In this document: one piece after another, positions 40,609 through 59,944 of the stretch
Layout: each line of letters starts with the position of its first letter
How positions within the stretch are numbered: the stretch's first letter is position 1
Assembly (NCBI GenBank): GCA_009829735.1
Contig: CM020618.1
Span: 24,971,346-25,035,345, forward strand
Reading direction: 5' to 3'
Length of the DNA: 64,000 nt
DNA from: Pyropia yezoensis
Lineage: Eukaryota; Rhodophyta; Bangiophyceae; Bangiales; Bangiaceae
Translations under genes and position numbers: made by a program
The notes under the pieces: model-generated
The model's input: only the letters and a program-made list of their open reading frames with translations
Databases searched by the model: none
Told to the model about the DNA's origin: nothing

Positions 40609-41077
40609 TGTGGCAAAAACCACTAGCACACACGGCACCCAAGTTGGGGCGGTGTGCTAGGGCTGCCTCCCGTGTCGGGGGAACCGGAAGAAGTGCAAGT
40701 CGCACACACTCTGTCCCTGTTGTGGGGCAAACCCCCCACGGACAAACAAGAGGATGGTGTGTGGTCCAACAGTTTCTTGGTCGGGACGGGGACGCAGGGC
40801 CAAGCCCCGCTGTCCCTCCCCTTATCCCCCCAGGGTCCACTCAGAATCTCGCCACTCAGAATCTCCCACCCCAGCACCTGCCCACCGGGCCACACGAAAA
40901 TTCAAGACGATAAATGCAGAAAACCCTCAAATCCAAGTTGGATTTACTACTAAGCTAACTATCCCAAACTTAGGGAATATGGACCCAAATGCAGGGGGAG
41001 GAACGGATCAGGCTAGTGGCCTGCCGCCCCTTGCATGGCACGTGTTGCCCCCCTACCTGGGGGTCAATACTGCCACA
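40609..41077 (-). repeat. LTR (3' LTR) of gypsy copy 1
   Basis: 469 bp, TG to CA ends, same as 49513-49981. It contains the stem CTAGCACAC/GTGTGCTAG (40623-40631 with 40652-40660) and a 17-bp near-palindrome centred on CCAAGTTGG (40929-40945). Confidence 0.96.
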
Positions 41078-41415: not shown

Positions 41416-43359
41416 ATGGCGACTCCGGGAGTGGAGACGGACTCTCTTGACGAGCACATGGAGGACACCTCCTACGGGGTAGCACCCGCCGGGACTTCCG
41501 GCGGGGGCTCCGCGATCGCTCCGGGGGACGGGACTCCCGCGTCACCCGGCTTTGGGTTGACGGCGGGGTCTCCCCCGGAGGCGGGACAAGTTGTCCCGCG
41601 TGAGGCCTTGGGGCAGTGGTTTTACCCCGCTTGGCCTCTCTATGAAGAGGGGCTGACTGCTCTTCGCTGTGGCCGACTTGGCGCAGCGATGGGCCGGGTA
41701 TGGGACCGCCTACGGGAGAAGTATCCCCGTAGGGTCGGATTCCCTGCAGGCTTCAGGACGGACCAGTTTGCCTTCCTGGACGATGAGGAGGTTGAGGACG
41801 TTCAGCGTGCCAAGGCCATGGTGGACCGCGGGGGAACTATCCCGGGTCCCTGCGACTTGCCGACCTTCACGTAGGACGCTGTGGCCACTCGCCCACCGTA
41901 CCTCCACGAGGCCGATCCGCACACTCATCACTTTGATGTGCGGATGGAGAAAGACTTCCGGCGAGGTCCCTACTTGGTGACCTCGGCTCAACTTGAGTTT
42001 CCTCAACAGTCTGCTGCCAGTAAGGAGCAGTACTATCCGAAGAAGCCCGAGTGGTGGCCTCAAGTTGAGGTCCCCTACGGGTTCCCGGCGTTGTTGCCAC
42101 GGTTGCTTGACCACTTCGGCTCCGTCATGTTGACGGCTGCCCCTGATCACCTGGTGTGGGCCATGTTGGCCACCCAGTGGCTCCTCGAGGTCATGTCGAC
42201 CTGGGTGTCCTGTGTTCAGCGGCGGGGGATGCTCTGGCATCTCCCCCTCCGGCTCCTCCAAGGTTTGGAACAGCTCACCCCTCAGCTAGTTGCTGAGGGG
42301 TGCTCATCAGGACAACTCACTCTACTTGAGGAGATGCTCCGGCTCCATAAGTTTATCGAGTGGGAGAGCATTGAGCACAAGTTGCGCCGCCCCACTCGTG
42401 GGCCCAAGGACGATGGCGCACTTCGCCAGTTCGTGTGGGTCGCTCGTGAACTTCACGACGGCCGTGTGGTCCTACGAGAGGGGTTGGGCATCGAGGACTA
42501 CCCGTATGCCCCGGGGGTTGATCGCCACACTGCGCCACCCCCGGACAAGCCCATAGTTATGGCCGTGCCGTCCTATGATGACCATATGACTCAACCCACT
42601 GCGGGGGCCCCAAGTCGGGGTCGCAGTTACACCCGGGTACCGCCACCTCGGCGGGCCCCTCCGCTTCCTCCTGTTCCTTTCCAACCTCACAGGAACATCC
42701 CGATCAGCGTGGCCGTGGAGTCTTCCACCCCGGTGTCCCCCCACTTGGGGGCCACCCTCCTGACGGTATACCCCAAGTTGGTGTTGCCGCCCACGCCTCT
42801 AACCTCAGAGATGATGATCACCACGTTGGTGCGCACCATTTCCTGGTTGGCCGCGTCGACCGGAACCCTACAGAGTTCCGAGACTCCTCAACTTGAGGAG
42901 CGCGTTCGTACTGCAGTGGCGACCGCGAGTTGCGAGTCGGTGGCGGAGTTTATGACAGCCGAGTTGGCTCGCATTGGGGCTATTATGCCCCAGCCAGCCC
43001 CACTTGGGCGTGGCAAACGTCGCGCGAGCCGGGCATACTCGCCTCCTCGCCGTCGTCGCCGACACTCGCGGCGCTCTCCTTCCGTATCGGAAGACGAGTT
43101 GTCTTACTCCGTTTCGGAGTCCTCTACCCCGTCGGAGACGAAGTCTGTCCAGCGTCTGCGTCGCAAACTTGCGCGCAAGACCAGGCAGAAGAGTGGCCAC
43201 GGTCGGCGCCACTTGCGCGACCGTGAGGGGCGCGACGGTTCCGACTTGGAGCCGCCGCCCCCTCCAACAAGTGGAGACCGTTATCGGCGTGGGTCTCGCC
43301 GCTCGCCTCCACGTGAGGGCGAGGGCCGTGGAGTGGGAGAGTCTAGCATGCATGCCTAG
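41416..43359 (+). pseudogene. Antisense-oriented extra ORF of gypsy copy 1, interrupted by one stop
   Basis: Same 647-codon frame as in copy 2, with the Trp codon at position 153 changed to TAG (41872-41874). Otherwise it is open to 43359. Seventeen further amino-acid differences separate the copies. The ATG is 2 nt after a 21-bp near-perfect palindrome (arms CTCTCCCCAA, 41393-41402 and 41404-41413). See copy 2 for the description. Confidence 0.88.
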
Positions 43360-43470: not shown

Positions 43471-46400
43471 TCACGTTGAGGGAGGGCTGTTAGGGTCTAT
43501 CTCATTCCGGGCACAGTACGCCCGGACCTTCTCAGCGGGAAGGTCCTCCACATACTCCCACGTATCATCCTTGGCTTTGTAGCCAAACCAACGCACCCTC
43601 AACATGAGGCGGTCAGTGTCTTCATCCCATCCGTGGTCGATGAACTTATCGAACACGTACTCCTGCGGGCCCTGTTTGGCCGCAGGCAGTGAGGGGAGGC
43701 GCCACGCTTCCAAAGCACGCGCCCAAGCTGGGTCGCCTGCAGGCGGTGGTGCAACTTTGACCACGTCCTGTCCGTTCACTGTGCGGACCCCATCGTCACT
43801 TTCGATGGTGAAGCGCCGCCCATCAGTACGAAGGACCTGGTACGGTCCCTTCTTCTGGAATACCAGCTTACCCCCAGTTGGGGTGTGCGAGTGTACCAGC
43901 ACCCAGTCACCCAGCTCGGGGACATGTTTAGCATTGCGCACCTTTTTGTCAAAGGTACGCTTGTAGCGCTTTTGTGCTTTGTCCATCTCAGCCCTGACTT
44001 TAGGGATGAGGTTTTCAAGCCTAGCTGCGAACTCCGCCTTACTCTCAGTAGGAGTAGGCGTACTGCCACCATCCTCCCTAGTTGGGAGCGACCGCCGCAC
44101 GGCAATAGACCGCACGCGACGGGGGGTCACAAAAGCGAGGGGTACTTCCTGTAGATGAGTGAACCTGCGAATTGTAGGCAGTAGTAAGGATAGAAATGTA
44201 TTGGTCCCACGTCTTCACGTGCTCACTCACATAGTGGCGCAGCTGCCTAACAATAGTTTTGTTGAAGCGCTCCACCTGCCCATTAGTTTGTGGGTGGTAG
44301 GGGGTGGCATAGTTTGCCTTAACCCCCAACATATCCAGCACTCCCTGAAACAGTACAGACGCAAATTGCGGTCCATTGTCCGATAGTGTACTATCTGGGA
44401 TGCCATACGCGGCAACCCAGTGATCTAGGAAGGCTGACACGACCGACATGGCCGTGATCTCTGCCAGTGGGATCGCTCGCGTAAGTTTCGTGAAGCGGTC
44501 ACAGATGACCAGGAGGCACTGGTTGCCCTCCTCGGTCACGGGCAGTGGCCCAAGGATGTCCATCGCCAACGCGGCGAAGGGCTCTTTGGCCGGGAACAAT
44601 AGCATAGCCGTAGTAGGCCGCCGTTCCATCAGACGATTCTGTGCACAACTTGTGCAGGCAGCCACCCAACTGTGGATGTCCACCACCATGGACGGCCAGT
44701 AGTACCTGGTCCTCAGGGTCTGGTACAGTTTACTAGACCCCAGGTGTCCACCCGTGGGAGCGTTGTGCTCCCTCTCAAGGATACTGTCCTTGAGGGATGC
44801 GGGGACGACAAGTTGTTCGGTCCCCTGGAATACCTCCTCCTCATGAGGAGGCCATCGTCTCCCAGAAAGAAACGCGTCTCTACTACTGTATCCAGTATAT
44901 CCCTCTGCGACTTGCAGAAGGGATCCTCCGCCTGGGCCTTCACCACCTCGTCCAGGGACAGGGGCAAGTACTTCTTGTTCCCTGGCGCCTCGGGGTTCAA
45001 CGCTTGACCCGAGCGCGTGACTACCCCCACGATGGGGATGTCCTCATCGACTGGGTTAGTGTCCAGCCCCTCGGTAGGTACCCGAGAGAGGCCGTCGGCA
45101 AGGGCATGTTGCCTGCCAGGTCGGTATTCAATGTCAAAGTTGAAGGGTGCCAGTCGCACCCTCCACCGGTTGAGACGAGTGTTCGTACAGTCCGTCTTAA
45201 AGATGAACTGCAACGCGCGGTGGTCACAGCGGATGAGGAACTTCTCACCCTCCAGGTAGTGACGAAGTGACGTCACCGCCCACACCACTGCGAGTCCTTC
45301 CAACTCGGTGACTCCGTAGTTCTTCTCGGCCGAGTTCAGCCCCTTACTAAAGTATCCCACCGGCAAGTACTCCTTGTCCGGCTGCTGCTGAAGCAACACA
45401 CAACCAAGTTCGTCGTAGCTAGCGTCCACATCCAGGATGTAGTGGCCTCCCGACCTGGGAATAGCCAAGATTGGGGGCTTCAGCAGAAGGTCCCGAAGAG
45501 TCTCAAAGGATTCCTGCTCCACCCGACTTGGGGGAGGCAGGTTCTTCGGTAGCGTTGAGCTCACTAGCTCATTCAACGGCTTCGCCACCTTGGCGAAGCC
45601 CTTGGTGAAACGTCGGTACACGTTACACATCCCGAGGAAGCTCCTCATCTGGGTCTGGGTCCGGGGGTACTGAGCCTTACGAATGGCCCTCAAGTTCTTC
45701 TCGTTAACACTGAGACGCCCCGGATGGACAACATGTCCCAAGTACTCCACCTCTTGAGTAAAGAGGTGGCACTTACTCGCCTTCAGTGACACACCGGCGT
45801 CAGCAAGTAGCTTGAACACCTGGCCAAGATGGCCAATGTGTTCCTCCGGACTTCGGGAGAACACAATGATATCGTCTAGGTACACAAGACAGATCTGCCA
45901 CCGTACTCCGGCCAGAATCATGTCCATAGCGCGCTGGAAAGTTGCCGGCGCGTTACACAGACGAAACGGTAGACGCTTGCACTGGTAGGTACCACAGTGA
46001 CAGGTAAAGGTAGTTTTATGCCTGTCCTCCGGGGCAATGGGAATTTGCCAGTACCCCGCGTTACAGTCCAGGGTAGAGAACACGTTTGCCTCCCCCAGAG
46101 AGTCCAGACAGTCATCCATCCTAGGTAGGGGATAACTGTCCTTCACCGTGCTCTCGTTGAGCTTACGGTAGTCGATACAAAACCGGGGGGTCCCATCAAC
46201 TTTGGGGACGATAACCACCGGACTCGCCCATTCGGCGTTGCTGGCCTCGATCACATCGAGGGCCTCCATGCGAGCAGCTTGCTCCTTCACGAGGGCCCTT
46301 GAACGAGGTCCTCCCCTATACGGTTGTTGGCGTATAGGGGGTGCACCGGGCTTCAACTCGATCCGGTGTTGGGTGGCTCTCATGAGTCCCAATTGACCAT

Positions 46401-47450
46401 CCCACAACTTGTGATATTGTCCAAGAGGCGTTCAACTTGAACCCTCAACCTGGGGGGGACACCCTCCATGTTCACATGGGGTCGAGGAGAGGCGGCCGAC
46501 TTGGCTTGATGCTTCTCCTTTCCGGACTTCGGGTCGCTACTTGCGCCCGCGTTGAGGGTGACCGCTACTACCGGTCCCTCGTGTTGGTCGATATAGCCGA
46601 ACTTGGCTCCCGACTTGAAGTACTTGGGCGTCGGGCTCAGGTTCATCACCTGGATCCTCCACGGGACTCCGGCTTTGGAGTCCATCGTGCCAAGGGCAAC
46701 ATGCACTTGGTGCTTGCGAGCTAGACGGGGGTGAGGGTGCACCAACCCGTTCCCCGTAAAATCAGTTACAACATAAACGTGCGCCACCGAGTTGGGGGGC
46801 AACGTGACTTTGCGGGCTAAACGCAGGGTAGCAGGAAACCCTTCCCTCACCGAACAAACAGGCTTCGACTGTGAGACTGTCACAGGGGCCACAGACTTTC
46901 CCTTACCAAGGATGGGGATAGTCTCCCCATTCATCAACTTGACCCAGTACTCAGGGCCACAAATCAAAGGCACTTGTGTAACAACATAAGGGGTACCCAG
47001 AAGCAGGGGTACCGATATATTCTCAACTACGCCATAGGTCACGTCGACCTCATGGGTCCCCAACCTAGTTGGTAGGGTCACGGCACCAACGATGGGAAGT
47101 ACCCCACCATTGATGTCAATCATATGGTCAGCTTTGGACCTCCAGCGTTGGAGCTTCATCTCCTTTGGTAATAGCGACTTGCGTATCAAGGAGGCTCCTG
47201 ACCCGGTATCAAACACGATACGGGTACAGCATGCACGGCCGGGGGCAAGTTGCACCCGTCCAGCCACCTGGAAGTTCTCACCCGTCAGCACCGCGATGAC
47301 CCGACGTGGGTTTACGTTCTTGGGGAGTCCTACCCGAGGTGGGCGGACTCCCTTAGGTCGCCGCAGTATCCGGCACGGTTGGTTCGTCCTCCTGGCCCAC
47401 TTGGCCGAGGCTGCCGTTGTGAGCTTCGGACGACCAGCCCCAACGGTCAT
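43471..47450 (-). pseudogene. Pol of gypsy copy 1, three frameshifts
   Basis: It encodes protease (DTGSGASLI), reverse transcriptase (YLDD), RNase H, integrase and chromodomain as in copy 2. Relative to copy 2 there is a 1-bp deletion at about 46419, a 1-bp deletion in the CCTCCTCCT run at about 44833 and a 2-bp deletion at about 44150. The frame is therefore broken after the protease, after RNase H and inside integrase. Confidence 0.93.
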
Positions 47451-49417
47451 TCGTTTCCCGCCGACTTGGCGTCCGAATCTGAGGGCGGGGAGGAAGACGA
47501 CGAGTCCGAGGACGACGTGTCCGCCTCCTCCGCCGAGGGTGTGGCGACCGCAACGACCGGTCGAGACCCACCCTCGCGGCGTGAACGTACTTCGTTCGTA
47601 GCCGACTTTTTACTCGCATTCCTAACAAGCTGTTGGATGCGTTTACTCAACTTGGGGCAATCATATGCCCAGTGACCATCGGAGTTGCAGTTCCAACACC
47701 GATGGTCCGTTCCGGGAGGGGTCTTCCCAACTGGGGAAGACGAAGGGATACCCTGAGAAGCTCCCACGGCAGCTACCACCCTCTCCTTGCGGATTCGGCG
47801 TGCCTCTCTCAACTCTCTGGCCTGGCGCGCCTCCTCCCGCTCCTTGGCCAACTCGGCCTGACGCTCCTCGCGTTGTTCCTCCCGCAACTTGCGGTAGGCC
47901 TCGCCTCTGCGATAGGCGAACCTGGCCAACTCGGCCAGGGTCGCCCGGGCAGTGTTATGCTCCCGGGTCTCCATCCGGACTAACCAATGGAGTCCCTCCA
48001 CAAACCGACTCTTCACCACAGCTTGTGGATGAAGAAACCCACAAAGATTGTTGAGCTTACGGACTCGCTCCGCAAAAGACAACTCGTCCTCCGCCTCTTC
48101 CTGATGGGCTTGCGCAAACTCCTCGACTTGAGAAGCCAACGCTGCCTCATCAACCATGGCTCTCAACAACCAGTTGACGAGCTCCAAATAGGACGTCACC
48201 TCCCCAGCGCCTCCACTTGAGGAGCTGGGCATGACGGACATAAGTTCTGTCCGCAGGTCGCCCTTCGTAAACTCCTGTAGCATATAGAAAGCCATGCCTT
48301 CACTTATGGCATTGTCGTCACAGGCTTTTGTGAAACGACGTAGGAACTCAAAGACACGGAGGGGGGGAGTTCCGTCCCACTCCGCTTTGTGCCCAAAAGA
48401 ATGAAGTGCATTCTTCTGGGCACGGCCCATGGCTCGGGCCTGGTCAGGACCATACGCCACCGACTTGTTGTGGAGGGCGTAGGTCTCACAGTCAAAGATC
48501 CTCTGGTAGACCGGGTTGGCTACCTGGACCTTGGGCGGCACCTCACGTTGAGGGAACAGCCGCTGTGGCACTGGGGTAAGTTCACTCTCAGTGCCTGTAG
48601 TCCGGCGCGGCGCGCTTGGTGTAGCCGCCGGCGTTTCCGGGGGGAACTCCCCCGTGAAGGGCGTACGCCCCACCGAGTATGGTGTGGCTCCCTCGTTGGG
48701 AGTCACAGGTGTCGCCCCCAGTTCGGGGCGACCAGAGATAGGCGTAAGGGGGGATTCCCCCTGCGCCTGCGGGCTCGAAAGCCCCAATCCGGTTTGGACA
48801 TTAAGGCCATCTGGCAAACTCGCCACAATCTGATTCAGAATAGTATTCGTCATCGTGACCACCAGGTCCGGCAAAGTCTGCCGCAACACATTGGTCGCCT
48901 CCCGACGGACAGTTTCCGCGAGGAGTGGATTGACGACCCCAGTTGAGTCTCGGTCCGCCTCCGGGAGTCCACCTGAGGGGTAACCACGTTGCTCAGGGGT
49001 CTCAACCGGGGGCATGGGCGCGAGCCCATCGCCGACCAACGGAGGTCCACCGTCCTCCGAAAGCCTAGTTGGCGACGACTCCAAGCCAAAGTTGGCTCCA
49101 ACCCGAGTGGAACCCGCGGGGACAGTCCTCACCCCTTGGGACGTTCCCGTTGAGTATACCACACGGTGGCCAGACTTCGGCCCACCCACATCAGAAGTGT
49201 CACCCGAGTGAACTCCCGACTGAGTCGGGGTGGCCTGTTGCCCGCCCGTACTTCCAGTCCTGCTGGCTTGAGGGACCTCTAGTCCCTCTGCGACCCCAGG
49301 TAAACCCACCTGTGTCTCACCAGTATTCAAAGGCACTGAAGTACGTGCGTCACCCGTGTACTCCCCGGACGACGGGGGGTCCGAGCTAGCCATGTTGGCT
49401 GACGATCCGTATGACAC
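47447..49417 (-). CDS. Gag of gypsy copy 1
   Basis: 656 aa, intact. A Gly/Pro/Thr-rich N-terminus is followed by a helical capsid-like region (FEFLRRFTKACDDNAISEGM, FAQAHQEEAEDELSFAERV) and one CCHC zinc knuckle, CWNCNSDGHWAYDC. The tail is Ser/Asp-rich. It overlaps the pol start by the sequence ATGA. Confidence 0.94.
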   Translation of the reverse strand: MSYGSSANMASSDPPSSGEYTGDARTSVPLNTGETQVGLPGVAEGLEVPQASRTGSTGGQQATPTQSGVHSGDTSDVGGPKSGHRVVYSTGTSQGVRTVPAGSTRVGANFGLESSPTRLSEDGGPPLVGDGLAPMPPVETPEQRGYPSGGLPEADRDSTGVVNPLLAETVRREATNVLRQTLPDLVVTMTNTILNQIVASLPDGLNVQTGLGLSSPQAQGESPLTPISGRPELGATPVTPNEGATPYSVGRTPFTGEFPPETPAATPSAPRRTTGTESELTPVPQRLFPQREVPPKVQVANPVYQRIFDCETYALHNKSVAYGPDQARAMGRAQKNALHSFGHKAEWDGTPPLRVFEFLRRFTKACDDNAISEGMAFYMLQEFTKGDLRTELMSVMPSSSSGGAGEVTSYLELVNWLLRAMVDEAALASQVEEFAQAHQEEAEDELSFAERVRKLNNLCGFLHPQAVVKSRFVEGLHWLVRMETREHNTARATLAELARFAYRRGEAYRKLREEQREERQAELAKEREEARQARELREARRIRKERVVAAVGASQGIPSSSPVGKTPPGTDHRCWNCNSDGHWAYDCPKLSKRIQQLVRNASKKSATNEVRSRREGGSRPVVAVATPSAEEADTSSSDSSSSSPPSDSDAKSAGNE

Positions 49418-49494
49418 GGTCCAAGACCACCGTTCCTCTGAGACAGAGGGCCCCCTACACCCGGGTGCACCCGGAGGTAAAGTTTACCTCTATC

Positions 49495-49510
49495 CCCTGC
49501 TGCTCCACCA
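49495..49510 (-). other. Candidate primer binding site of gypsy copy 1
   Basis: In element orientation TGGTGGAGCAGCAGGG, 2 nt from the 5' LTR. It begins TGG, complementary to a tRNA CCA end. Which tRNA is not known. An 8-bp-arm hairpin (GAGGTAAA/TTTACCTC, 49474-49490) follows in the leader. Confidence 0.65.
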
Positions 49511-49512
49511 AA

Positions 49513-49981
49513 TGTGGCAAAAACCACTAGCACACACGGCACCCAAGTTGGGGCGGTGTGCTAGGGCTGCCTCCCGTGTCGGGGGAACCGGAAGAAGTGC
49601 AAGTCGCACACACTCTGTCCCTGTTGTGGGGCAAACCCCCCACGGACAAACAAGAGGATGGTGTGTGGTCCAACAGTTTCTTGGTCGGGACGGGGACGCA
49701 GGGCCAAGCCCCGCTGTCCCTCCCCTTATCCCCCCAGGGTCCACTCAGAATCTCGCCACTCAGAATCTCCCACCCCAGCACCTGCCCACCGGGCCACACG
49801 AAAATTCAAGACGATAAATGCAGAAAACCCTCAAATCCAAGTTGGATTTACTACTAAGCTAACTATCCCAAACTTAGGGAATATGGACCCAAATGCAGGG
49901 GGAGGAACGGATCAGGCTAGTGGCCTGCCGCCCCTTGCATGGCACGTGTTGCCCCCCTACCTGGGGGTCAATACTGCCACA
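49513..49981 (-). repeat. LTR (5' LTR) of gypsy copy 1
   Basis: 469 bp, reads identical to 40609-41077. Confidence 0.96.
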
Positions 49982-50039
49982 CCCGCTGTCCCCCATCCCC
50001 CTGCTGCTGCCCCCGCCCCTCCCCCCCCGCTCCCGCCCC

Positions 50040-50560
50040 ATGAACTGTGACGCGGAAATGGGCGGCGGGGACATGTACTACCCGCCGGGGACCCCCCCCC
50101 CGCCCCCCGCCCACGGCGGCGGCCGGCGGTGCCCGAACTCGACTGGCACACCACCCCCCGGGGGGCCCCCCCCGACCGCCCCTGCCCGCCCGCCCGGGAC
50201 GGCACCTGGACGACCGACTCCTCGGCGGCCGTGTCGTCGCCGGTCACGCCACTGGGCGATGGCCACGGCAAGGTCACCCGCTTTGCCGACGCCTACAAGC
50301 AGCACGACGGCGACGGGGCGGGGGTTACGCCCTCCCCGGCGGTGGACTTTGCCCTCCTGGTGGGGAGGGAGGAGGAGGAGGAGGAGGGCGCCGCTGGGGG
50401 CGGGGCCGCGTGGGCGGGCGAGCTCCTTACCGAGGTGTGCACGCTACGAAGCAGCGGCGGCGGCGGCCGGCGAGGGAGCACCGCCAGCCATGGCGGCAGG
50501 GCCGACGGCCCGCCGTCGCGGCGGTCCATGTCGGTGGAGCTCCCGCTTGACGACGGGGAC
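50040..50560 (+). pseudogene. Host gene fragment between the two gypsy elements
   Basis: Unrecognised host coding sequence. An ATG at 50040 opens a short Pro-rich frame. A different frame from about 50,051 encodes GTWTTDSSAAVSSPVTPLGD, KVTRFADAYKQHDGDGAGV, AVDFALLVGREEEEEE and ends SMSVELPLDDGD at the copy 2 insertion point. The two frames could be one gene if the C-run near 50091-50106 has a length error or change. Removing copy 2 and one target duplication leaves the frame open into 59,945-60,226. Confidence 0.5.
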
Positions 50561-51028
50561 TGTGGCAAAAACCACTCGCACACACAGTACCCAAGTTGGG
50601 GCGGTGTGCGAGGGCTGCCTCCCGTGTCGGGGGAACCGGAAGAAGTGCAAGTCGCACACACTCTATCCCTGTTGTGGGGCAATCCCCCCACGGACAAACA
50701 AGATGATGGTGTGTGGTCCAACAGTTTCTTGGTCGGGACGGGGACGCAGGGCCAAGCCCCGCTGTCCCTCCCCTTATCCCCCCAGGGTCCACTCAGAATC
50801 TCGCCACTCAGAATCTCCCACCCCAGCACCTGCCCACCGGGCCACACGAAAATTCAAGACGATAAATGCAGAAAACCCTCAAATCCAAGTTGGATTTACT
50901 ACTAAGCTAACTATCCCGAACTTAGGGAATATGGACCCAAATGCAGGGGGAGGAACGGACCAGGCTAGTGGCCTGCCGCCCCTTGCATGGCACGTGTTGC
51001 CCCCTACCTGGGGGTCAATACTGCCACA
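50561..51028 (-). repeat. LTR (3' LTR) of gypsy copy 2
   Basis: 468 bp, same as 59472-59939. The terminal stem reads CTCGCACAC/GTGTGCGAG (50575-50583 with 50604-50612). Confidence 0.96.
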
Positions 51029-51041
51029 CTCCCCTCTCCTC
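51029..51041 (-). other. Polypurine tract of gypsy copy 2
   Basis: GAGGAGAGGGGAG in element orientation, abutting the 3' LTR. Confidence 0.8.
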
Positions 51042-51370
51042 AGTTCCGACCGACCCGGTCGGCCCTGTGAGGGGGTGCGTAAACGCACGTCTCGGCGTTG
51101 GGGGGGGACGCGACTTGCTGTCCCCCCTTGAGTACGTAACGCGGATGTGGAGGCGGTCACGTTGGCCGCCCCTCTCCTCAAGCTTGCCCACTTGGCAGCT
51201 TGCTCTCCCCGGTTCACACCTCACCACCACCACCACTTCTCCTTCACCTTACACGGGGCCACCCCACGCTGGGGAGGCCACCCGTTTACCCACGATCCGA
51301 GTCCCCCTCAACTCGAGGCGGGTCTCGTGCCGCGATAGCCAGGACGTCTCTCCCCAACTTGGGGAGAGCC

Positions 51371-53314
51371 ATGGCGACCCCGGGGGTGGAGACGGACTCT
51401 CTCGACGAACGTATGGAGGACACCTCCTACGGTGCAGCGCCCGCCGGGACTTCCGGCGGGGGCTCCGCGATCGCTCCGGGGGGTGGGACTCCCGCGTCAC
51501 CCGGCTTTGGGTTGACGGCAGGATCTCCCCCGGAGGCGGGACAAGTTGTCCCGCGTGAGGCCTTGGGGCGGTGGTTTTACCCCGCTTGGCCTCTGTATGA
51601 GGAGGGGTTGACTGTTCTTCGCTGTGGCCGACTCGGCGCAGCGATGGGTCGGGTATGGGACCGCCTACGGGAGAAGTATCCCCGTAGGGTCGGGTTCCCT
51701 GCCGGCTTCAGGACGGACCAGTTTGCCTTCCTGGACGACGAGGAGGTCGAGGACGTGCAGCGGGCCAAGGCCATGGTGGACCGCGGGGGAACTATCCCGG
51801 GTCCCGGCGACTTGCCGACCTTCACTTGGGACGCGGTGGCAACTCGCCCCCCGTACCTTCACGAGGCCGATCCGCACACTCATCACTTTGATGTGCGGAT
51901 GGAGAAGGACTTCCGGCGAGGTCCCTACTTGGTGACCTCGGCTCAACTTGAGTTTCCTCAGCAGTCTGCTGCCAGTAAGGAGCAATACTACCCGAAGAAG
52001 CCCGAGTGGTGGCCTCAAGTTGAGGTCCCCTACGGGTTCCCGGCATTGTTGCCACGGTTGCTTGACCACTTCGGCTCCGTCATGTTGACGGCTGGCCCTG
52101 ATCATCTGGTGTGGGCCATGTTGGCCACCCAGTGGCTCCTCGAGGTCATGTCGACCTGGGTGTCATGTGTTCAGCGGCGGGGGATGCTCTGGCATCTCCC
52201 CCTCCGGCTCATCCAGGGTTTGGAACAGCTCACCCCTCAGCTAGTTGCTGAGGGGTGCTCGTCAGGACAACTCACTCTACTTGAGGAGATGCTCCGCCTC
52301 CACAAGTTTATCGAGTGGGAGAGCATTGAGCACAAGTTGCGCCGCCCCACTCGGGGGCCCAAGGACGATGGCGCACTTCGCCAGTTCGTGTGGGTCGCTC
52401 GTGAACTTCACGACGGCCGTGTGGTCCTACGAGAGGGGTTGGGCATCGGGGACTACCCGTATGCCCCGGGGGTGGATCGTCACACTGCGCCACCCCCGGA
52501 CAAGCCCATAGTTATGGCTGTGCCCTCATATGATGACCATATGACTCAACCTACTGCGGGAGCCCCAAGTCGGGGTCGCAGTTACACCCGGGTACCGCCA
52601 CCTCGGCGTGCCCCTCCGCTTCCTCCTGTTCCTTTCCAGCCTCACGGGAACATCCCGATCAGCGTGGCCGTAGAGTCATCCACACCGGTGTCTCCCAACT
52701 TGGGGGCCACCCTCCTGACGGTATACCCCAAGTTGGTGTTACCGCCCACGCCTCTAACCTCAGAGATGATGATCACCACGTTGGTGCGCACCATTTCCTG
52801 GTTGGCCGCGTCGACCGCAACCCTCCAAAGTTCCGAGACTCCTCAACTTGAGGAGCGCGTTCGTACTGCAGTGGCGACCGCGAGTTGCGAGTCGGTGGCG
52901 GAGTTTATGACGGCCGAGTTGGCTCGCATTGGGGCTATTATGCCCCAGCCAACCCCACTTGGGCGTGGCAAGCGTCGTGCGAGCCGGGCATACTCGCCTC
53001 CTCGCCGTCGTCGCCGTCACTCGCGGCGCTCTCCCTCCGTGTCGGAAGACGAGTTGTCTTACTCCGTCTCGGAGTCCTCTACCCCATCGGAGACGGAGTC
53101 TGTCCAGCGTCTGCGTCGCAAACTTGCGCGCAAGACCAGGCAGAAGAGTAGCCACGGTCGGCGCCACTTGCGCGACCGTGAGGGGCGCGACGGTTCCGAC
53201 TTGGAGCCGCCGCCCCTTCCAACGAGTGGAGACCGTTATCGGCGTGGGTCTCGCCGCTCGCCTCCACGTGAGGGCGAGGGCCGTGGAGTGGGAGAGTCTA
53301 GCATGCGTGCCTAG
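51371..53314 (+). CDS. Extra ORF of the gypsy element, opposite in orientation to gag-pol
   Basis: 647 aa. I recognise no known domain. The N-terminal third is Gly/Ala/Ser-rich, leading to WFYPAWPLYEEGL and VWDRLREKYPRRVGF. The middle is structured and hydrophobic/aromatic: YLHEADPHTHHFDVRMEKDF, FPALLPRLLDHFGSVML, WAMLATQWLLEVMSTWVSCV, LTLLEEMLRLHKFIEWESIE. A Pro/Arg-rich hinge follows (TRVPPPRRAPPLPPVPFQP). The C-terminus is Arg/Ser-rich (SPPRRRRRHSRRSPSVSEDE, LRRKLARKTRQKS), like an RS domain or a nuclear/RNA-binding tail. No signal peptide or Env-like membrane pattern is visible. It lies convergent to pol with 111 bp between the stops and is probably transcribed from the 3' LTR side. In 51591-51785 versus copy 1, 11 differences are synonymous and 1 is not, so the protein appears to be selected. 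Confidence 0.9.
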   Translation: MATPGVETDSLDERMEDTSYGAAPAGTSGGGSAIAPGGGTPASPGFGLTAGSPPEAGQVVPREALGRWFYPAWPLYEEGLTVLRCGRLGAAMGRVWDRLREKYPRRVGFPAGFRTDQFAFLDDEEVEDVQRAKAMVDRGGTIPGPGDLPTFTWDAVATRPPYLHEADPHTHHFDVRMEKDFRRGPYLVTSAQLEFPQQSAASKEQYYPKKPEWWPQVEVPYGFPALLPRLLDHFGSVMLTAGPDHLVWAMLATQWLLEVMSTWVSCVQRRGMLWHLPLRLIQGLEQLTPQLVAEGCSSGQLTLLEEMLRLHKFIEWESIEHKLRRPTRGPKDDGALRQFVWVARELHDGRVVLREGLGIGDYPYAPGVDRHTAPPPDKPIVMAVPSYDDHMTQPTAGAPSRGRSYTRVPPPRRAPPLPPVPFQPHGNIPISVAVESSTPVSPNLGATLLTVYPKLVLPPTPLTSEMMITTLVRTISWLAASTATLQSSETPQLEERVRTAVATASCESVAEFMTAELARIGAIMPQPTPLGRGKRRASRAYSPPRRRRRHSRRSPSVSEDELSYSVSESSTPSETESVQRLRRKLARKTRQKSSHGRRHLRDREGRDGSDLEPPPLPTSGDRYRRGSRRSPPREGEGRGVGESSMRA

Positions 53315-53425
53315 TTGGCAGCTGCCTTTGTTGTGAGAGTGTGAGGGTTAGGGCTGTAGTTTAAAGCCACTCTGCGTACCACTTCGACTTGAAGCACTCT
53401 CTTGGCACTGTTGCTCGGCCTTCCC

Positions 53426-56400
53426 TCACGTTGAGGGAGGGCTGTTAGGGTCTATCTCGTTCCGGGCACAGTACGCCCGGACCTTCTCAGCAGGAAGGTC
53501 CTCCACATACTCCCACGTATCGTCCTTGGCTTTGTAGCCAAACCAACGCACCCTCAACATGAGGCGGTCAGTATCCTCATCCCAGCCGTGGTCGATGAAC
53601 TTGTCGAACACGTACTCCTGCGGGCCCTGTTTGGCTGCAGGCAGCGAGGGCAGGCGCCACGTTTTCAAGGCACGCGCCCAAGCTGGGTCGCCTGCAGGCG
53701 GTGGTGCAACTTTGACCACGTCCTGTCCGTTCACTGTGCGGACCCCATCGTCACTTTCGATGGTGAAGCGCCGCCCATCAGTACGAAGGACCTGGTACGG
53801 CCCCTTCGTCTGGAACACCAACTTACCCCCAGTTGGGGTGTGTGAGTGGACCAATACCCAGTCACCCTGCTCGGGGACATGCTTGGCGTTGCGCACCTTT
53901 TTGTCAAAGGTACGCTTGTAGCGCTTTTGTGCTTTGTCCATCTCAGCCCTGACTTTAGGGATGAGGTTTTCAAGCCTAGCAGCGAACTCCGCCTTACTCT
54001 CAGTAGGAGTGGGCGTACTGCCACCATCCTCCCTAGTTGGGAGCGGCCGCCGCACGGCAATAGACCGCACGCGACGGGGGGTCACAAAAGCGAGGGGTAC
54101 TTCCCCGGTAGATGAGTGAACCTGCGAATTGTAGGCAGTGGTCAGAATAGAAATGTATTGGTCCCACGTCTTCACGTGCTCACTCACATAATGGCGCAGC
54201 TGCCTAACAATAGTTTTGTTGAAGCGCTCCACCTGCCCATTAGTTTGTGGGTGGTAGGGGGTGGCATAGTTTGCCTTAACCCCCAACATATCCAGCACTC
54301 CTTGAAACAGTACAGACGCAAATTGCGGTCCATTGTCCGATAGTGTACTATCCGGAATGCCATACGCGGCAACCCAGTGATCTAGGAAGGCTGACACGAC
54401 CGACATGGCCGTGATCTCTGCCAGTGGGATCGCTCGCGTAAGTTTCGTGAAGCGGTCACAGATGACCAGGAGGTACTGGTTGCCCTCCTCGGTCACTGGC
54501 AGTGGCCCAAGGATGTCCATCGCCAACGCGGCGAAGGGCTCCTTGGCCGGGAACAATAGCATAGCCGTAGTAGGCCGCCGTTCCATCAGACGGTTCTGTG
54601 CACAACTTGTGCAGGCAGCCACCCAACTGTAGATGTCCACCACCATGGACGGCCAGTAGTACCTGGTCCTCAGGGTCTGGTACAGTTTACTAGACCCCAG
54701 GTGTCCACCCGTGGGAGCGTTATGCTCCCTCTCAAGGATACTGTCCTTGAGGGATGCGGGGACGACAAGTTGTTCGGTCCCCTGGAATACCCCCCTCCTC
54801 ATGAGGAGGCCATCGTCTCCCAGGAAGAACCGCGTCTCCGCCACTGTATCCAGGGTATCCCTCTGCGACTTGCAGAAGGGATCCTCGGCCTGGGCCTTCA
54901 CTACTTCGTCCAGGGACAGGGGCAAGTACTTCTTGTTCCCTGGCGCCTCGGGATTCAACGCCTGACCCGAGCGCGTGACTACCCCCACGATGGGGATGTC
55001 CTCATCGACTGGGGTGGTGTCCAGTCCCTCGGTAGGTACCCGAGAGAGGCCGTCGGCAAGGGCATGTTGCCTGCCAGGTCGGTACTCAATATCAAAGTTG
55101 AAGGGTGCAAGTCGCACCCTCCACCGGTTGAGACGAGTGTTCGTACAGTCCGTCTTGAAGATGAACTGCAACGCGCGGTGGTCGCAGCGGATGAGGAACT
55201 TCTCACCCTCTAGGTAGTGACGAAGTGACGTCACCGCCCATACCACTGCGAGTCCTTCCAACTCGGTGACTCCGTAGTTCTTCTCGGCCGAGTTTAGCCC
55301 CTTGCTGAAGTATCCCACCGGCAAGTACTCCTTGTCCGGCTGTTGCTGAAGCAACACACAACCAAGTTGGTCGTAGCTAGCGTCCACATCCAGGATGTAG
55401 TGGCCTCCCAACCTGGGAATAGCCAGGATAGGGGGCTTCAGCAGAAGGTCCCGAAGAGTCTCAAAGGATTCCTGCTCCACCCGACTTGGGGGAGGCAGGT
55501 TCTTCGGTAGCGTTGAGCTCACTAACTCATTCAACGGCTTCGCCACTTTGGCGAAGCCCTTAGTGAAACGTCGGTACACGTTACACATCCCGAGGAAGCT
55601 CCTCATCTGGGTCTGGGTCCGGGGGTACTGAGCCTTGCGGATGGCCCTCAAGTTTTTCTCGTTGACACTGAGACGCCCCGGACGGACAACATGTCCCAAG
55701 TACTCCACCTCTTGAGTGAAGAGGTGGCACTTACTCGCCTTCAGTGACACTCCGGCGTCAGCAAGTAGCTTGAACACCTGGCCAAGATGGCCAATGTGTT
55801 CCTCCGGACTTCGGGAGAACACAATGATATCGTCTAGGTACACGAGACAGATCTGCCACCGTACTCCGGCCAGAATCATGTCCATAGCGCGCTGGAAAGT
55901 TGCCGGCGCGTTACACAGGCCAAACGGTAGGCGCTTGCACTGGTAGGTACCACAGTGACAGGTAAAGGTAGTTTTATGCCTGTCCTCCGGGGCAATGGGA
56001 ATTTGCCAGTACCCCGCGTTACAGTCCAGGGTAGAGAACACGTTTGCCTCCCCCAGAGAGTCCAGACAGTCATCCATCCGAGGTAGGGGATAACTATCCT
56101 TCACCGTGCTCTCGTTGAGCTTACGGTAGTCGATACAGAACCGGGGGGTCCCATCAACTTTGGGGACGATCACCACCGGACTCGCCCACTCGGCGTTGCT
56201 GGCCTCGATCACATCGAGGGCCTCCATGCGAGCAACTTGCTCCTTAACGAGGGCCCTTGAACGGGGTCCCCTCCTATACGGTTGTTGGCGTATAGGGGGC
56301 GCACCGGGTTTCAACTCGATCCGGTGTTGGGTAGCTCTCATGAGTCCCAATTGACCATCCCACAACTTGTGATATTGGTCCAAGAGGCGTTCAACTTGAA

Positions 56401-57409
56401 CCCTCAACCTGGGTGGAACACCCTCCATGTTTACCTGGGGCCGAGGAGAGGCGGCCGACTTGGCTTGATGCTTCTCCTTTCCGGACTGCGGGTCGCTACT
56501 TGCGCCCGCGCTGAGGGTGACCGCTACTACCGGTCCCTCGTGTTGGTCGATATAGCCGAACTTGGCCCCCGACTTGAAGAACTTGGGCGACGAGCTCAGG
56601 TTCATCACCTGGATCCTCCACGGGACTCCGGCTTTGGAGTCCATCGTGCCAAGGGCAACATGCACTTGGTGCTTGCGAGCAAGACGGGGGTTAGGGTGCA
56701 CCAACCCGTTCCCCGCATAATCAGTTACAACATCCACGTGCGCCACCGAGTTGGGGGGCAACATGACTTTACGGGCTAAACGCAGAGTAGCAGTAAACCC
56801 TTCCCTCACAGAACAAACAGGCTTCGACTGTGAAACTGTCACAGGAGCCACAGACTTTCCCTTACCAAGGATGGGGATAGTCTCCCCATTCATCAACTTG
56901 ACCCAGTACTCAGGGCCACAAATCAAAGGCACTTGTGTTACGACATAAGGGGTACCCAGAAGCAGGGGTACCGATATATTCTCAACTACACCATAGGTCA
57001 CGTCGACCTCATGGGTCCCCAACCGAGTTGGTAGGGTCACGGCACCAACGATGGGAAGTACCCCACCATTGATATCGATCAGATGGTCAGCTTTAGACTT
57101 CCAGCGTTGGAGCCTCATCCCCTTTGGTAATAGCGACTTGCGTATCAAGGAGGCTCCTGACCCGGTATCAAGTACGATACGGGCACAACAGGCGCGGCCG
57201 GGGGCAAGTTGCACCCGTCCAGCCACCTGGAAGTTCTCACCCGTCAGCACCGCGATGACCCGACGTGGGTTTACGTTCTTGGGAAGTCCCACCCGAGGTG
57301 GGCGGACTCCCTTAGGTCGCCGCAGTATCCGACACGATTGGTTCGTCCTCTTGGCCCACTTGGCCGAGGCTGCCGTTGTGAGCTTCGGACGACCAGCTCC
57401 AACGGTCAT
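53426..57409 (-). CDS. Pol polyprotein of gypsy copy 2 (PR-RT-RH-INT-chromodomain)
   Basis: 1327 aa, uninterrupted. In order: retropepsin-type protease with DTG (81-83); reverse transcriptase with YPLPRMDD, FSTLDCNAGYWQIPI and the catalytic YLDD (524-527); RNase H (HYILDVDASYDQLGCVLLQQ); integrase with a zinc-binding HHCC segment (ending CTSCAQ) and the core motifs MDILGPLPV, LSDNGPQFAS and NGQVERFNKT; and a C-terminal chromodomain (DHGWDEDTDRLMLRVRW, WEYVEDLP) that likely steers integration to particular chromatin. That domain order defines the chromovirus branch of Metaviridae. The start codon overlaps the gag stop in ATGA. Confidence 0.97.
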   Translation of the reverse strand: MTVGAGRPKLTTAASAKWAKRTNQSCRILRRPKGVRPPRVGLPKNVNPRRVIAVLTGENFQVAGRVQLAPGRACCARIVLDTGSGASLIRKSLLPKGMRLQRWKSKADHLIDINGGVLPIVGAVTLPTRLGTHEVDVTYGVVENISVPLLLGTPYVVTQVPLICGPEYWVKLMNGETIPILGKGKSVAPVTVSQSKPVCSVREGFTATLRLARKVMLPPNSVAHVDVVTDYAGNGLVHPNPRLARKHQVHVALGTMDSKAGVPWRIQVMNLSSSPKFFKSGAKFGYIDQHEGPVVAVTLSAGASSDPQSGKEKHQAKSAASPRPQVNMEGVPPRLRVQVERLLDQYHKLWDGQLGLMRATQHRIELKPGAPPIRQQPYRRGPRSRALVKEQVARMEALDVIEASNAEWASPVVIVPKVDGTPRFCIDYRKLNESTVKDSYPLPRMDDCLDSLGEANVFSTLDCNAGYWQIPIAPEDRHKTTFTCHCGTYQCKRLPFGLCNAPATFQRAMDMILAGVRWQICLVYLDDIIVFSRSPEEHIGHLGQVFKLLADAGVSLKASKCHLFTQEVEYLGHVVRPGRLSVNEKNLRAIRKAQYPRTQTQMRSFLGMCNVYRRFTKGFAKVAKPLNELVSSTLPKNLPPPSRVEQESFETLRDLLLKPPILAIPRLGGHYILDVDASYDQLGCVLLQQQPDKEYLPVGYFSKGLNSAEKNYGVTELEGLAVVWAVTSLRHYLEGEKFLIRCDHRALQFIFKTDCTNTRLNRWRVRLAPFNFDIEYRPGRQHALADGLSRVPTEGLDTTPVDEDIPIVGVVTRSGQALNPEAPGNKKYLPLSLDEVVKAQAEDPFCKSQRDTLDTVAETRFFLGDDGLLMRRGVFQGTEQLVVPASLKDSILEREHNAPTGGHLGSSKLYQTLRTRYYWPSMVVDIYSWVAACTSCAQNRLMERRPTTAMLLFPAKEPFAALAMDILGPLPVTEEGNQYLLVICDRFTKLTRAIPLAEITAMSVVSAFLDHWVAAYGIPDSTLSDNGPQFASVLFQGVLDMLGVKANYATPYHPQTNGQVERFNKTIVRQLRHYVSEHVKTWDQYISILTTAYNSQVHSSTGEVPLAFVTPRRVRSIAVRRPLPTREDGGSTPTPTESKAEFAARLENLIPKVRAEMDKAQKRYKRTFDKKVRNAKHVPEQGDWVLVHSHTPTGGKLVFQTKGPYQVLRTDGRRFTIESDDGVRTVNGQDVVKVAPPPAGDPAWARALKTWRLPSLPAAKQGPQEYVFDKFIDHGWDEDTDRLMLRVRWFGYKAKDDTWEYVEDLPAEKVRAYCARNEIDPNSPPST

Positions 57410-59376
57410 TCGTTTCCCGCCGACTTGGCGTCCGAATCTGAGGGCGAAGGGGACGACGACGAGTCCGAGGACGACGTGTCCGCCCCCTCCGTCGAGGGTG
57501 TGGCGACCGCCACCACTGGTCGAGACCCACCCTCGCGGCGTGAACGCACTTCGTTCGTAGCCGACTTCTTACTCGCATTCCTAACAAGCTGTTGGATGCG
57601 TTTACTCAACTTGGGGCAATCATATGCCCAGTGACCATCGGAGTTGCAGTTCCAACACCGATGATCAGTTCCCGGAGGGGTCTTCCCAACTGGGGAAGAC
57701 GACGAGGTACCTTGGGAAGTTCCCACGGCAGCTACCACCCTCTCCTTGCGGATTCGGCGTGCCTCTCGCAACTCTCTGGCCTGGCGCGCCTCTTCCCGTT
57801 CCTTGGCCAACTCGGCCTGACGCTCCTGGCGTTGTTCCTCCCGCAACTTGCGGTAGGCCTCGCCTCTGCGGTAGGCGAACCTAGCCAACTCGGCCAGGGT
57901 CGCCCGGGCAGTGTTATGCTCCCGGGTCTCCATCCGGACTGACCAGTGGAGTCCTTCCACAAACCGACTCTTCACCACAGCTTGTGGATGAAGAAACCCA
58001 CAAAGATTGTTGAGCTTACGGACTCGCTCCGCAAAGGACAACTCGTCCTCCGCCTCTTCCTGATGGGCTTGCGTAAACTCCTCGACTTGAGAAGCCAACG
58101 CCGCTTCATCAACCATGGCCCTCAACAACCAGTTGACGAGCTCCAAATAGGACGTCACCTCCCCAGCGCCTCCACTTGAGGAGCTGGGCATGACGGACAT
58201 AAGTTCTGTCCGCAGGTCTCCCTTCGTAAACTCCTGTAGCATGTAAAAAGCCATGCCTTCACTTATGGCATTGTCGTCACAGGCTTTTGTGAAACGACGT
58301 AGGAACTCAAAGACACGGAGGGGGGGAGTTCCATCCCACTCCGCTTTGTGCCCAAAAGAGTGAAGTGCATTCTTCTTGGCACGGCCCATGGCTCGGGCCT
58401 GGTCAGGACCATACGCCACCGACTTGTTGTGGAGGGCGTAGGTCTCACAGTCAAAGATCCTCTGGTAGACCGGGTTGGCTACCTGGATCTTGGGCGGCAC
58501 CTCACGTTGAGGGAACAGCCGCTGTGGCACTGGGGTAAGTCCACCCTCAGTGCCTGTAGTCTGATACGGCGAGCTTGGTGTAGCCGCCGGCGTTTCCGAG
58601 GGGAACTCCCCCGTGAAGGGCGTACGCCCCACCGCGTATGGTGTGGCTCCCTCGTTGGGAGTCACAGGTGTCGCCCCCAGTTCGGGGCGACCCGAGATAG
58701 GCGTGGGGAGGGATTCCCCCTGCGCCTGTGGGCTCGAAAGCCCCAATCCGGTCTGGACATTCAGGCCATCTGGCAAACTCGCTACAATCTGATTCAGAAT
58801 AGTATTCGTCATCGTGACCACCAGGTCCGGCAAAGTCTGCCGCAACACAGTGGTCGCCTCCCGACGGACAGTTTCCGCGAGGAGTGGATTGACGACTCCA
58901 GTTGAGTCTCGGTCCACCTCCGGGAGTCCACCTGAGGGGTAACCACGTTCCTCAGGGGTCTCAACCGGGGGCATGGGCGCGAGCCCATCGCCGACCAACG
59001 GAGGTCCGCCGTCCTCCGAAAGCCTAGTTGGCGATGGCTCCATGCCAAAGTTGGCTCCAACCCGAGTGGAACTCGCGGGGACAGTCCTCACCCCTTGGGA
59101 CGTTCCCGTTGAGTATACCACGCGGTGGCCAGACTTCGGCCCACCCACGTCAGAAGTGTCACCCGAGTGAACTCCCGACTGAGTCGGGGTGGCCTGTTGC
59201 CCGCCCGCACTTCCAGTCCTGCTGGCTTGAGGGACCTCTAGTCCCTCTGCGACCCCAGGTAAACCCACCTGTGTCTCACCAGTATTCAAAGGCACTGAAG
59301 TACGTGCGTCACCCGTGTACTCCCCGGACGACGGGGGGTCCGAGCTAGCCATGTTGGCTAACGATCCGTATGACAC
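57406..59376 (-). CDS. Gag of gypsy copy 2
   Basis: 656 aa, intact, with the same layout as copy 1: Thr/Gly/Pro-rich N-terminus, helical capsid-like middle, an Arg/Glu-rich coiled-coil (REEQRQERQAELAKEREEAR), the CCHC knuckle CWNCNSDGHWAYDC and a Ser/Asp tail. It packages element RNA. Confidence 0.95.
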   Translation of the reverse strand: MSYGSLANMASSDPPSSGEYTGDARTSVPLNTGETQVGLPGVAEGLEVPQASRTGSAGGQQATPTQSGVHSGDTSDVGGPKSGHRVVYSTGTSQGVRTVPASSTRVGANFGMEPSPTRLSEDGGPPLVGDGLAPMPPVETPEERGYPSGGLPEVDRDSTGVVNPLLAETVRREATTVLRQTLPDLVVTMTNTILNQIVASLPDGLNVQTGLGLSSPQAQGESLPTPISGRPELGATPVTPNEGATPYAVGRTPFTGEFPSETPAATPSSPYQTTGTEGGLTPVPQRLFPQREVPPKIQVANPVYQRIFDCETYALHNKSVAYGPDQARAMGRAKKNALHSFGHKAEWDGTPPLRVFEFLRRFTKACDDNAISEGMAFYMLQEFTKGDLRTELMSVMPSSSSGGAGEVTSYLELVNWLLRAMVDEAALASQVEEFTQAHQEEAEDELSFAERVRKLNNLCGFLHPQAVVKSRFVEGLHWSVRMETREHNTARATLAELARFAYRRGEAYRKLREEQRQERQAELAKEREEARQARELREARRIRKERVVAAVGTSQGTSSSSPVGKTPPGTDHRCWNCNSDGHWAYDCPKLSKRIQQLVRNASKKSATNEVRSRREGGSRPVVAVATPSTEGADTSSSDSSSSPSPSDSDAKSAGNE

Positions 59377-59453
59377 GGTCCAAGTCCACCGTTCCTCTGA
59401 GACAGAGGGCCCCCTACACCCGGGTGCACCCGGAGGTAAAGTTTACCTCTGTC

Positions 59454-59469
59454 CCCTGCTGCTCCACCA
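59454..59469 (-). other. Candidate primer binding site of gypsy copy 2
   Basis: TGGTGGAGCAGCAGGG in element orientation, 2 nt from the 5' LTR, identical to copy 1. Confidence 0.65.
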
Positions 59470-59471: not shown

Positions 59472-59939
59472 TGTGGCAAAAACCACTCGCACACACAGTA
59501 CCCAAGTTGGGGCGGTGTGCGAGGGCTGCCTCCCGTGTCGGGGGAACCGGAAGAAGTGCAAGTCGCACACACTCTATCCCTGTTGTGGGGCAATCCCCCC
59601 ACGGACAAACAAGATGATGGTGTGTGGTCCAACAGTTTCTTGGTCGGGACGGGGACGCAGGGCCAAGCCCCGCTGTCCCTCCCCTTATCCCCCCAGGGTC
59701 CACTCAGAATCTCGCCACTCAGAATCTCCCACCCCAGCACCTGCCCACCGGGCCACACGAAAATTCAAGACGATAAATGCAGAAAACCCTCAAATCCAAG
59801 TTGGATTTACTACTAAGCTAACTATCCCGAACTTAGGGAATATGGACCCAAATGCAGGGGGAGGAACGGACCAGGCTAGTGGCCTGCCGCCCCTTGCATG
59901 GCACGTGTTGCCCCCTACCTGGGGGTCAATACTGCCACA
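59472..59939 (-). repeat. LTR (5' LTR) of gypsy copy 2
   Basis: 468 bp, reads identical to 50561-51028. Confidence 0.96.
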
Positions 59940-59944
59940 GGGAC

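What the first reader, a model, noticed from the sequence alone, without database searches (positions are those of the whole stretch)
51371..53314. Gypsy chromovirus with a long, selectively constrained gene in the opposite orientation to gag-pol
Both gypsy copies carry a 647-codon ORF between pol and the 3' LTR on the opposite strand. In the stretch compared (41636-41830 versus 51591-51785) there are 11 synonymous changes and 1 replacement; over the whole ORF there are 17 replacements plus one nonsense change. It has aromatic/hydrophobic helices and an RS-like tail, with no Env features. Antisense-oriented ORFs are known in a few plant LTR elements, but I cannot match this one to any of them. 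It may be a regulator, a silencing counter-factor or an RNA-binding accessory protein.
Basis: partly seen in the sequence, partly recalled or inferred. Interest (0 to 1): 0.78.

Follow-up and report, generated by a model that had tools for sequence, protein, structure and literature searches.

The report
Conserved antisense gene in seaweed retrotransposon
A jumping gene that is common in the nori seaweed genome carries, on its opposite strand, an extra gene for an unknown protein that evolution protects about as strongly as the jumping gene's own enzymes; opposite-strand extra genes of this kind are known from plants and fungi, but what they do is not known.

Summary
51371-53314 (+) is a 647-codon ORF between pol and the 3' LTR of a complete Ty3/gypsy element, antisense to gag-pol. 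The second element (41416-43359) carries the same ORF with a stop at codon 153. Contig sizes identify the host as the red alga Pyropia yezoensis. The ORF codes for protein: between two subfamilies 44 of 47 diagnostic differences are synonymous, against 59 of 167 changes seen in single B copies (p = 1e-13). Omega between the window copies is 0.085 (pol 0.10, gag 0.24). At least 228 places carry it; 131 of the 150 listed pol 3' ends have it at the expected spot. Copies about 20% diverged still align along it. No Pfam or PDB match; the 5.8-billion-protein search gave one near-identical sequence, although it holds pol relatives at 60-69% identity. No transmembrane stretch; the tail is Arg/Ser-rich without RS-dipeptide enrichment. 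Most likely an accessory gene of the aORF-3R kind (maize Grande, Retand, fungal Boty), probably a nuclear nucleic-acid-binding regulator; that function is inferred, and transcription is untested. New member of a known kind, in a new host group, with an orphan protein.

The parts
51371..53314 (+). antisense additional ORF (aORF), 647 aa, orphan protein; helices in a very low-confidence model about 73-137, 223-347 and 443-519; proline-rich linker, Arg/Ser-rich basic tail 531-647
41416..43359 (+). aORF of the second element (subfamily B), 95.8% identical, stop at codon 153
50561..51028 (-). 3' LTR of element A (468 bp, TGTGGCA...TGCCACA)
59472..59939 (-). 5' LTR of element A, identical to the 3' LTR
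50556..50560 (.). target-site duplication GGGAC (left)
59940..59944 (.). target-site duplication GGGAC (right)
51029..51041 (-). polypurine tract next to the 3' LTR (assigned by position and composition)
   Evidence: sequence
51042..51370 (+). spacer upstream of the aORF, the room for a promoter of its own apart from the 3' LTR; not specially conserved between subfamilies
53315..53425 (.). 111-bp spacer between the convergent 3' ends of aORF and pol; 0 of 111 columns differ diagnostically between A and B, but the adjoining pol stretch also has few (3 of 475)
53426..57409 (-). pol: RT, RNase H, integrase; weak aspartyl-protease and chromodomain matches below cut-off
57406..59376 (-). gag with CCHC zinc knuckle (ORF as listed, from GTG); ATGA stop/start overlap with pol
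59453..59469 (-). putative primer-binding site (begins TGG, 2 nt from the LTR); tRNA not identified
   Evidence: sequence
40609..41077 (-). 3' LTR of element B; target-site duplication CCCGC at 40604-40608
49513..49981 (-). 5' LTR of element B, identical to its 3' LTR; target-site duplication CCCGC at 49982-49986

Best explanation
A protein-coding accessory gene of a young, multi-copy Ty3/gypsy family of the red alga Pyropia yezoensis, of the aORF-3R kind (between pol and the 3' LTR, antisense to gag-pol). Shown: the frame is under strong purifying selection at the protein level; it was found at 131 of 150 listed pol 3' ends, and in an older, about 20%-diverged sister family, so it was in place before these families split. 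Inferred: it is read from its own plus-strand transcript that starts in the 3' LTR or in the spacer 51029-51370 and ends near the 111-bp gap before pol. Inferred: its product enters the nucleus through the Arg-rich tail and binds the element's nucleic acid or the chromatin at it, helping expression, RNA handling or integration, much as proposed for maize Grande GENE23 or viral HBZ.
For: A|B diagnostic differences (at least 90% in each group) 44 synonymous: 3 replacement, 43 of 47 at codon position 3, against 59: 108 for changes seen in one B copy; neutral expectation 28% synonymous. Omega 0.085 between the window copies, pol 0.101, gag 0.237; 0.038 between A and an open B copy, L040. 29 of 29 A copies and 26 of 30 B copies open (the copies were fetched by sequence likeness, so this is biased upward). 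At least 228 distinct places (lower bound); 131 of 150 listed pol 3' ends have the aORF at the expected distance and strand. Older copies L071, L072 and L073: omega 0.22-0.25 against A, 0.15-0.27 with the two partial pieces and B included; L073 is open along 606 aligned codons. An older copy continues past the aORF into the end of pol at 82% identity (L069), so the arrangement is old. The block RRRRRHSRRSPSVSEDE is unchanged in the five rows of A3 that reach it, L072 and L073 among them. Known parallels: PMC7264820 (main text read), PMC11963269 (passages).
Against: No transcript, protein or localisation was examined. The structure model is worthless (mean pLDDT 33.9), and no family or fold match exists (one search gave only two NCBIfam matches, to one older copy, far below cut-off), so nucleic-acid binding rests on composition alone. 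RS dipeptides are not enriched. The presumed promoter spacer holds the most diverged 200-bp bin between A and B (net 0.061). The contrast of shared against private changes among the older copies was not significant (p = 0.33). Omega is higher between older copies (0.26-0.38), as expected of decaying copies but also weaker evidence. 19 of the 150 pol ends were not shown to have the ORF.
Confidence: 0.55

Rival explanations
1. The protein is a second structural or particle protein (a Gag-like or chaperone factor) that acts in the cytoplasmic particle rather than in the nucleus.
For: Gag-like size, possible helical blocks (very low-confidence model), basic tail that could bind genomic RNA; constraint as strong as pol.
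Against: No similarity to the element's own gag (best E 0.27 over 11 residues), no zinc knuckle or other Pfam match; it is encoded on the opposite strand, so it would need its own transcript.
Confidence: 0.15
2. The protein counters host silencing of the element (RNA-silencing or chromatin-silencing suppressor).
For: High copy number and very young insertions (identical LTRs in both window elements; at least 228 places) suggest that the family escapes control; extra genes of unknown function are plausible places for such factors (inference).
Against: No positive sequence evidence; few replacements between subfamilies are unlike the fast change expected of an arms-race protein, although the N-terminal 60 residues change fast between A and L073 (omega 0.62).
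Confidence: 0.15
3. The antisense RNA, not the protein, is what matters, as an antisense regulator of gag-pol expression.
For: Antisense transcripts with possible regulatory effects are described for LTR elements (PMC7264820).
Against: The substitution pattern is that of a protein-coding frame: 43 of 47 diagnostic differences at third positions. An RNA function alone would not give this.
Confidence: 0.04
4. A host gene was captured by the element.
For: The RAD50-like host gene in the window is also one uninterrupted frame with similar GC3 (0.717, against 0.694 for the aORF).
Against: No match in Pfam, PDB or the protein collection beyond P0002, none above cut-off in NCBIfam; present in an older sister family, hence not recent. 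A single-copy host relative that scores below the hundreds of element copies could not have been seen with the capped search.
Confidence: 0.08
5. A chance open frame in GC-rich DNA.
For: The genome is GC-rich and long ORFs are frequent (57 ORFs of 200 aa or more in 64 kb).
Against: 0 of 2000 simulations reach 647; third-position bias and omega 0.085.
Confidence: 0.01

Closest known systems
Maize Grande gene23 (aORF-3R)
   Same: Antisense ORF between pol and 3' LTR of an LTR element; such ORFs are in most copies and conserved like the other element proteins (PMC7264820).
   Different: Grande's protein is reported nuclear and its gene has its own promoter (as cited there); neither was tested here. 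Different host group; no direct sequence comparison was made.
Retand lineage antisense ORFs with the TRP28 domain (PF04195)
   Same: Position and orientation; in nearly all young clusters (PMC11963269, passages).
   Different: No TRP28 match here at E up to 1 or 5. Retand is a non-chromovirus lineage of flowering plants; this element is in a red alga and has a weak chromodomain match. [quoted passage not shown]
Fungal Boty antisense ORF (Botrytis, Sclerotinia)
   Same: Antisense ORF in a non-plant LTR element (named in PMC7264820).
   Different: Sequence not compared.
Antisense genes of retroviruses (HBZ of HTLV-1)
   Same: Antisense gene with a nuclear product; named as a parallel in PMC11963269.
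   Different: Analogy only; no homology tested or expected.

Membership tests
aORF-3R-bearing LTR retrotransposons | ORF between pol and 3' LTR, antisense to gag-pol | tested here: met
aORF-3R-bearing LTR retrotransposons | present in all or most copies of the family | tested here: met
   131 of the 150 listed (best-scoring) pol 3' ends; 19 undecided; less similar pol ends were not examined
aORF-3R-bearing LTR retrotransposons | conservation similar to gag and pol | tested here: met
   omega 0.085 against 0.101 (pol) and 0.237 (gag)
aORF-3R-bearing LTR retrotransposons | antisense transcript, own promoter | not testable with these tools
   no RNA data; upstream spacer not specially conserved
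Retand-type (TRP28) aORF | Transposase_28 domain PF04195 | tested here: not met
   no Pfam match at E up to 1 for P0001, or up to 5 for P0002 and three older copies or pieces
Ty3/gypsy | pol order RT - RNase H - integrase, LTRs with 5-bp target-site duplication | tested here: met
chromovirus | chromodomain C-terminal to integrase | tested here: inconclusive
   PF00385 at residues 1269-1313, E 0.00096, 19.5 bits, below cut-off 25.1; of the six pol relatives P0006-P0011 (60-69% identical) two carry a precomputed PF00385
chromovirus | RT tree placement in the chromovirus branch | not tested
   no tree made
Env-like aORF | transmembrane segment | tested here: not met
   highest 19-residue hydropathy mean 1.23; a simple hydropathy scan, no dedicated predictor
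RS-domain (SR) protein | enrichment in RS/SR dipeptides | tested here: not met
   5 in the 117-residue tail; 9932 of 10000 shuffles have as many

The most novel reading that the evidence does not exclude
The antisense gene encodes a new protein family, peculiar to red-algal gypsy elements, that is as necessary for the element's spread as reverse transcriptase: a nuclear nucleic-acid-binding factor made from a separate antisense transcript. Because that transcript is not the RNA that is packaged, its upkeep would have to be explained by something other than a protein acting on its own message.
Probability: 0.3. Interest if true: 0.72.

Novelty: new member of a known kind. Interest (0 to 1): 0.5.

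Why it matters
Antisense extra genes of LTR elements have been listed for years without a known function (PMC7264820), and a large survey of green plants raised the question whether such extra ORFs have any function (PMC6317226, passages). Here a young family with hundreds of similar copies, two subfamilies and an older sister family gives a population-style test, and it shows protein-level selection about as strong as on pol. It takes the kind into red algae and names one concrete protein to express and localise.

Tried and rejected
Homology: Pfam, NCBIfam (nothing for P0001; two matches for the older copy L073 at E 0.015 and 0.062, far below cut-off, taken as chance), PDB by sequence and by profile, two searches of the 5.8-billion-protein collection (whole protein, with the candidate list cut at 7998; residues 58-395, E up to 1): one hit each time, the same P0002 at 97-98%, from source 'lgn' (which I take to be Logan). 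IMG/VR by aORF: no pattern match; by pol alignment A2: 23 pattern matches, none confirmed. Comparison with the element's gag: nothing. Structure prediction: mean pLDDT 33.9, so no fold search was made; the second job was not used because the diverged copies that would help are not among the sequences that tool says it accepts.

Selection tests that did not help: changes shared by all older rows against changes private to one (78 S: 84 N+X against 128: 168, p = 0.33). The 'fixed' count printed (1645) is a bug of my script and is not used; one search repeats it correctly (13 strictly fixed: 12 S, 1 N). Single-copy changes in A (67 S: 34 N) are biased because the A copies were fetched by protein likeness; B copies were fetched by DNA likeness, and their single-copy changes are slightly more synonymous than neutral (59 of 167 against 28%, p = 0.048). 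Rows: 72 loci were at hand; 57 gave a full-length ungapped aORF and the two window copies make 59. Left out were 15: L001-L008 and L019 (incomplete), L031 and L039 (the window's own places), L069-L072 (older family or no match). One row put with A, L017, is as far from A (76 differences) as from B (92-105) and is really a third lineage. Six replacements separate winA from at least 28 of the other 29 B rows; only three pass the 90% rule in both groups.

I first thought the 111-bp spacer and a promoter region might be conserved; the upstream spacer holds the most diverged bin and the pol stretch next to the 111-bp spacer also has few diagnostic differences, so I make no claim on either. A mosaic of subfamilies at the aORF edge was looked for and not clearly seen. 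Finding other gypsy families in this genome with P0015 did not complete.

Full report
What is there. The window holds two Ty3/gypsy elements on the minus strand, both complete at their ends. Element A runs from its 5' LTR (59472-59939) to its 3' LTR (50561-51028); the LTRs are identical over 468 bp and are flanked by GGGAC on both sides. Element B has LTRs 49513-49981 and 40609-41077, 0 differences in 469, flanked by CCCGC. In A, gag (57406-59376, zinc knuckle) and pol (53426-57409; RT, RNase H, integrase, weak chromodomain match) are open and overlap as ATGA. Between pol and the 3' LTR, on the plus strand, lies a 647-codon ORF, 51371-53314, starting in the context GCCATGG. It ends 111 bp before the end of pol, so the two genes converge. 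B has the same ORF at 41416-43359 with a stop at codon 153, and its pol differs from A's by three small deletions, four bases in all.

Host. The window lies in a 107.5-Mb genome with contigs of 43.59, 34.33 and 29.39 Mb. The Pyropia yezoensis genome paper gives three chromosome scaffolds of 43.6, 34.3 and 29.4 Mb, 65% GC and 48% repeats, mostly LTR retrotransposons (PMC7423979, passages). So this is very probably that red alga, not a land plant.

Is it a gene? Chance is excluded: 0 of 2000 simulated stretches of the same first-order composition have an open run of 647 codons in any frame, maximum 491. I compared 59 full-length copies of the ORF (29 grouped with A, 30 with B; two are the window's). 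At 47 positions at least 90% of A differ from at least 90% of B: 44 synonymous, 3 replacement, 43 of them at codon position 3. Changes seen in a single B copy are 59 synonymous, 106 replacement, 2 nonsense, near the 28% synonymous expected without selection (p = 0.048). Fisher's exact test between the two: p = 1.2e-13. This is the pattern of a working gene in the active lineages and decay in inserted copies. Between the two window elements omega is 0.085 for the ORF, 0.101 for pol and 0.237 for gag; between A and the open B copy L040 it is 0.038 (59 synonymous, 7 replacements).

How common and how old? Of the 150 best-matching pol 3' ends, 113 have an ORF place at the expected distance on the opposite strand, and a further search raises this to 131; the other 19 are undecided, not shown to lack it. 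An older family is about 20% diverged in DNA. Its copies L071 and L072 carry stops or frameshifts; L073 is open along 606 aligned codons. Against A their omega is 0.22-0.25; the two partial pieces give 0.17 and 0.25; older copies against each other give 0.26-0.38. In the protein search with an older piece, 13 of 122 matches belong to this older group and 8 of those 13 contain stops in the piece; of the other 109, two do. One older copy continues from the ORF across the spacer into the end of pol at 82% identity (L069), so the arrangement predates the split.

What does the protein look like? In the comparison of A with L073, residues 151-385 change least (omega 0.12-0.16), then 441-530 (0.20) and the basic part 531-606 (0.30); the N-terminal 60 residues change fast (0.62). 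A basic Arg/Ser-rich block in the tail is identical in the five rows that reach it. The tail has a net charge of +18 but no excess of RS dipeptides, and there is no transmembrane-like stretch by hydropathy. Pfam and PDB show nothing; NCBIfam shows nothing above cut-off. The protein collection gave one near-identical relative (97%, P0002), while the same collection holds relatives of this pol at 60-69% identity. The search finds relatives that share short exact words, so an aORF relative below roughly 40-45% identity could be missed (my estimate). The structure model is too poor to use.

Mechanism. Shown: coding, constraint, presence in the family, orientation. Inferred: own antisense transcript, nuclear entry through the Arg-rich block, binding to the element's nucleic acid or chromatin, help to expression, RNA handling or integration. 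The parallels are Grande gene23, whose product is reported nuclear and has its own promoter, and Retand antisense ORFs, for which DNA binding was predicted (PMC7264820, main text read; PMC11963269, passages). I found no sequence support for a conserved promoter: the bin just upstream of the ORF is the most diverged of those compared between subfamilies.

Comparison with the known. Antisense ORFs between pol and the 3' LTR are a known kind, in flowering plants and in the fungi Botrytis and Sclerotinia. In a survey of green plants the extra ORFs of Ty3/gypsy elements fell into 314 groups by similarity (PMC6317226, passages). I did not see a red-algal case in print; the searches were those, in a library of open-licence papers, seen as listings and not all rows shown, so this is weak evidence. 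A red-alga paper (Bostrychia) is cited in PMC12477816 for giant DNA transposons with accessory genes (passages); I did not read it. I file the gene as a new member of a known kind, with an orphan protein and a new host group.

Noticed in passing
window 40609-49981: Element B has identical LTRs (0 of 469 differences) but a stop in the aORF, three small deletions in pol, and 11 of its 17 aORF replacements are in at most 1 of the other 29 B copies. Either the copy was already defective and was moved with the help of other copies, or some changes are assembly errors.
   Followed up: partly
window 57406-57409: gag stop and pol start overlap as ATGA in different frames, so pol may be made by termination-reinitiation or frameshifting.
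   Followed up: no
window 5125-9249 (-): 1374-codon uninterrupted RAD50-like host gene (AAA_23, SMC_N, Rad50 zinc hook matches).
   Followed up: no
window 2391-4334 (+): An ORF that is also exactly 647 aa long but has no similarity to the aORF by blastn: coincidence of length.
   Followed up: yes
window 38792-39502: Exact tandem duplication of about 355 bp, some 1.1 kb left of element B.
   Followed up: no
L027 (G000:C1:18319544-18323413): A subfamily-A element next to, apparently inserted into, the aORF of an older-family element; the older copy continues on L069, but its other half was not found in L070.
   Followed up: partly
L017 (G000:C1:15166428-15170297): An aORF copy that differs from both A (76) and B (92-105) by about 4-5%, so a third young lineage exists.
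   Followed up: no
G000:C1 near 38323921, 38331782 and 38337364: Three aORF C-terminal pieces within about 14 kb, each in a 384-codon open frame, one inverted: perhaps a rearranged or truncated cluster.
   Followed up: no
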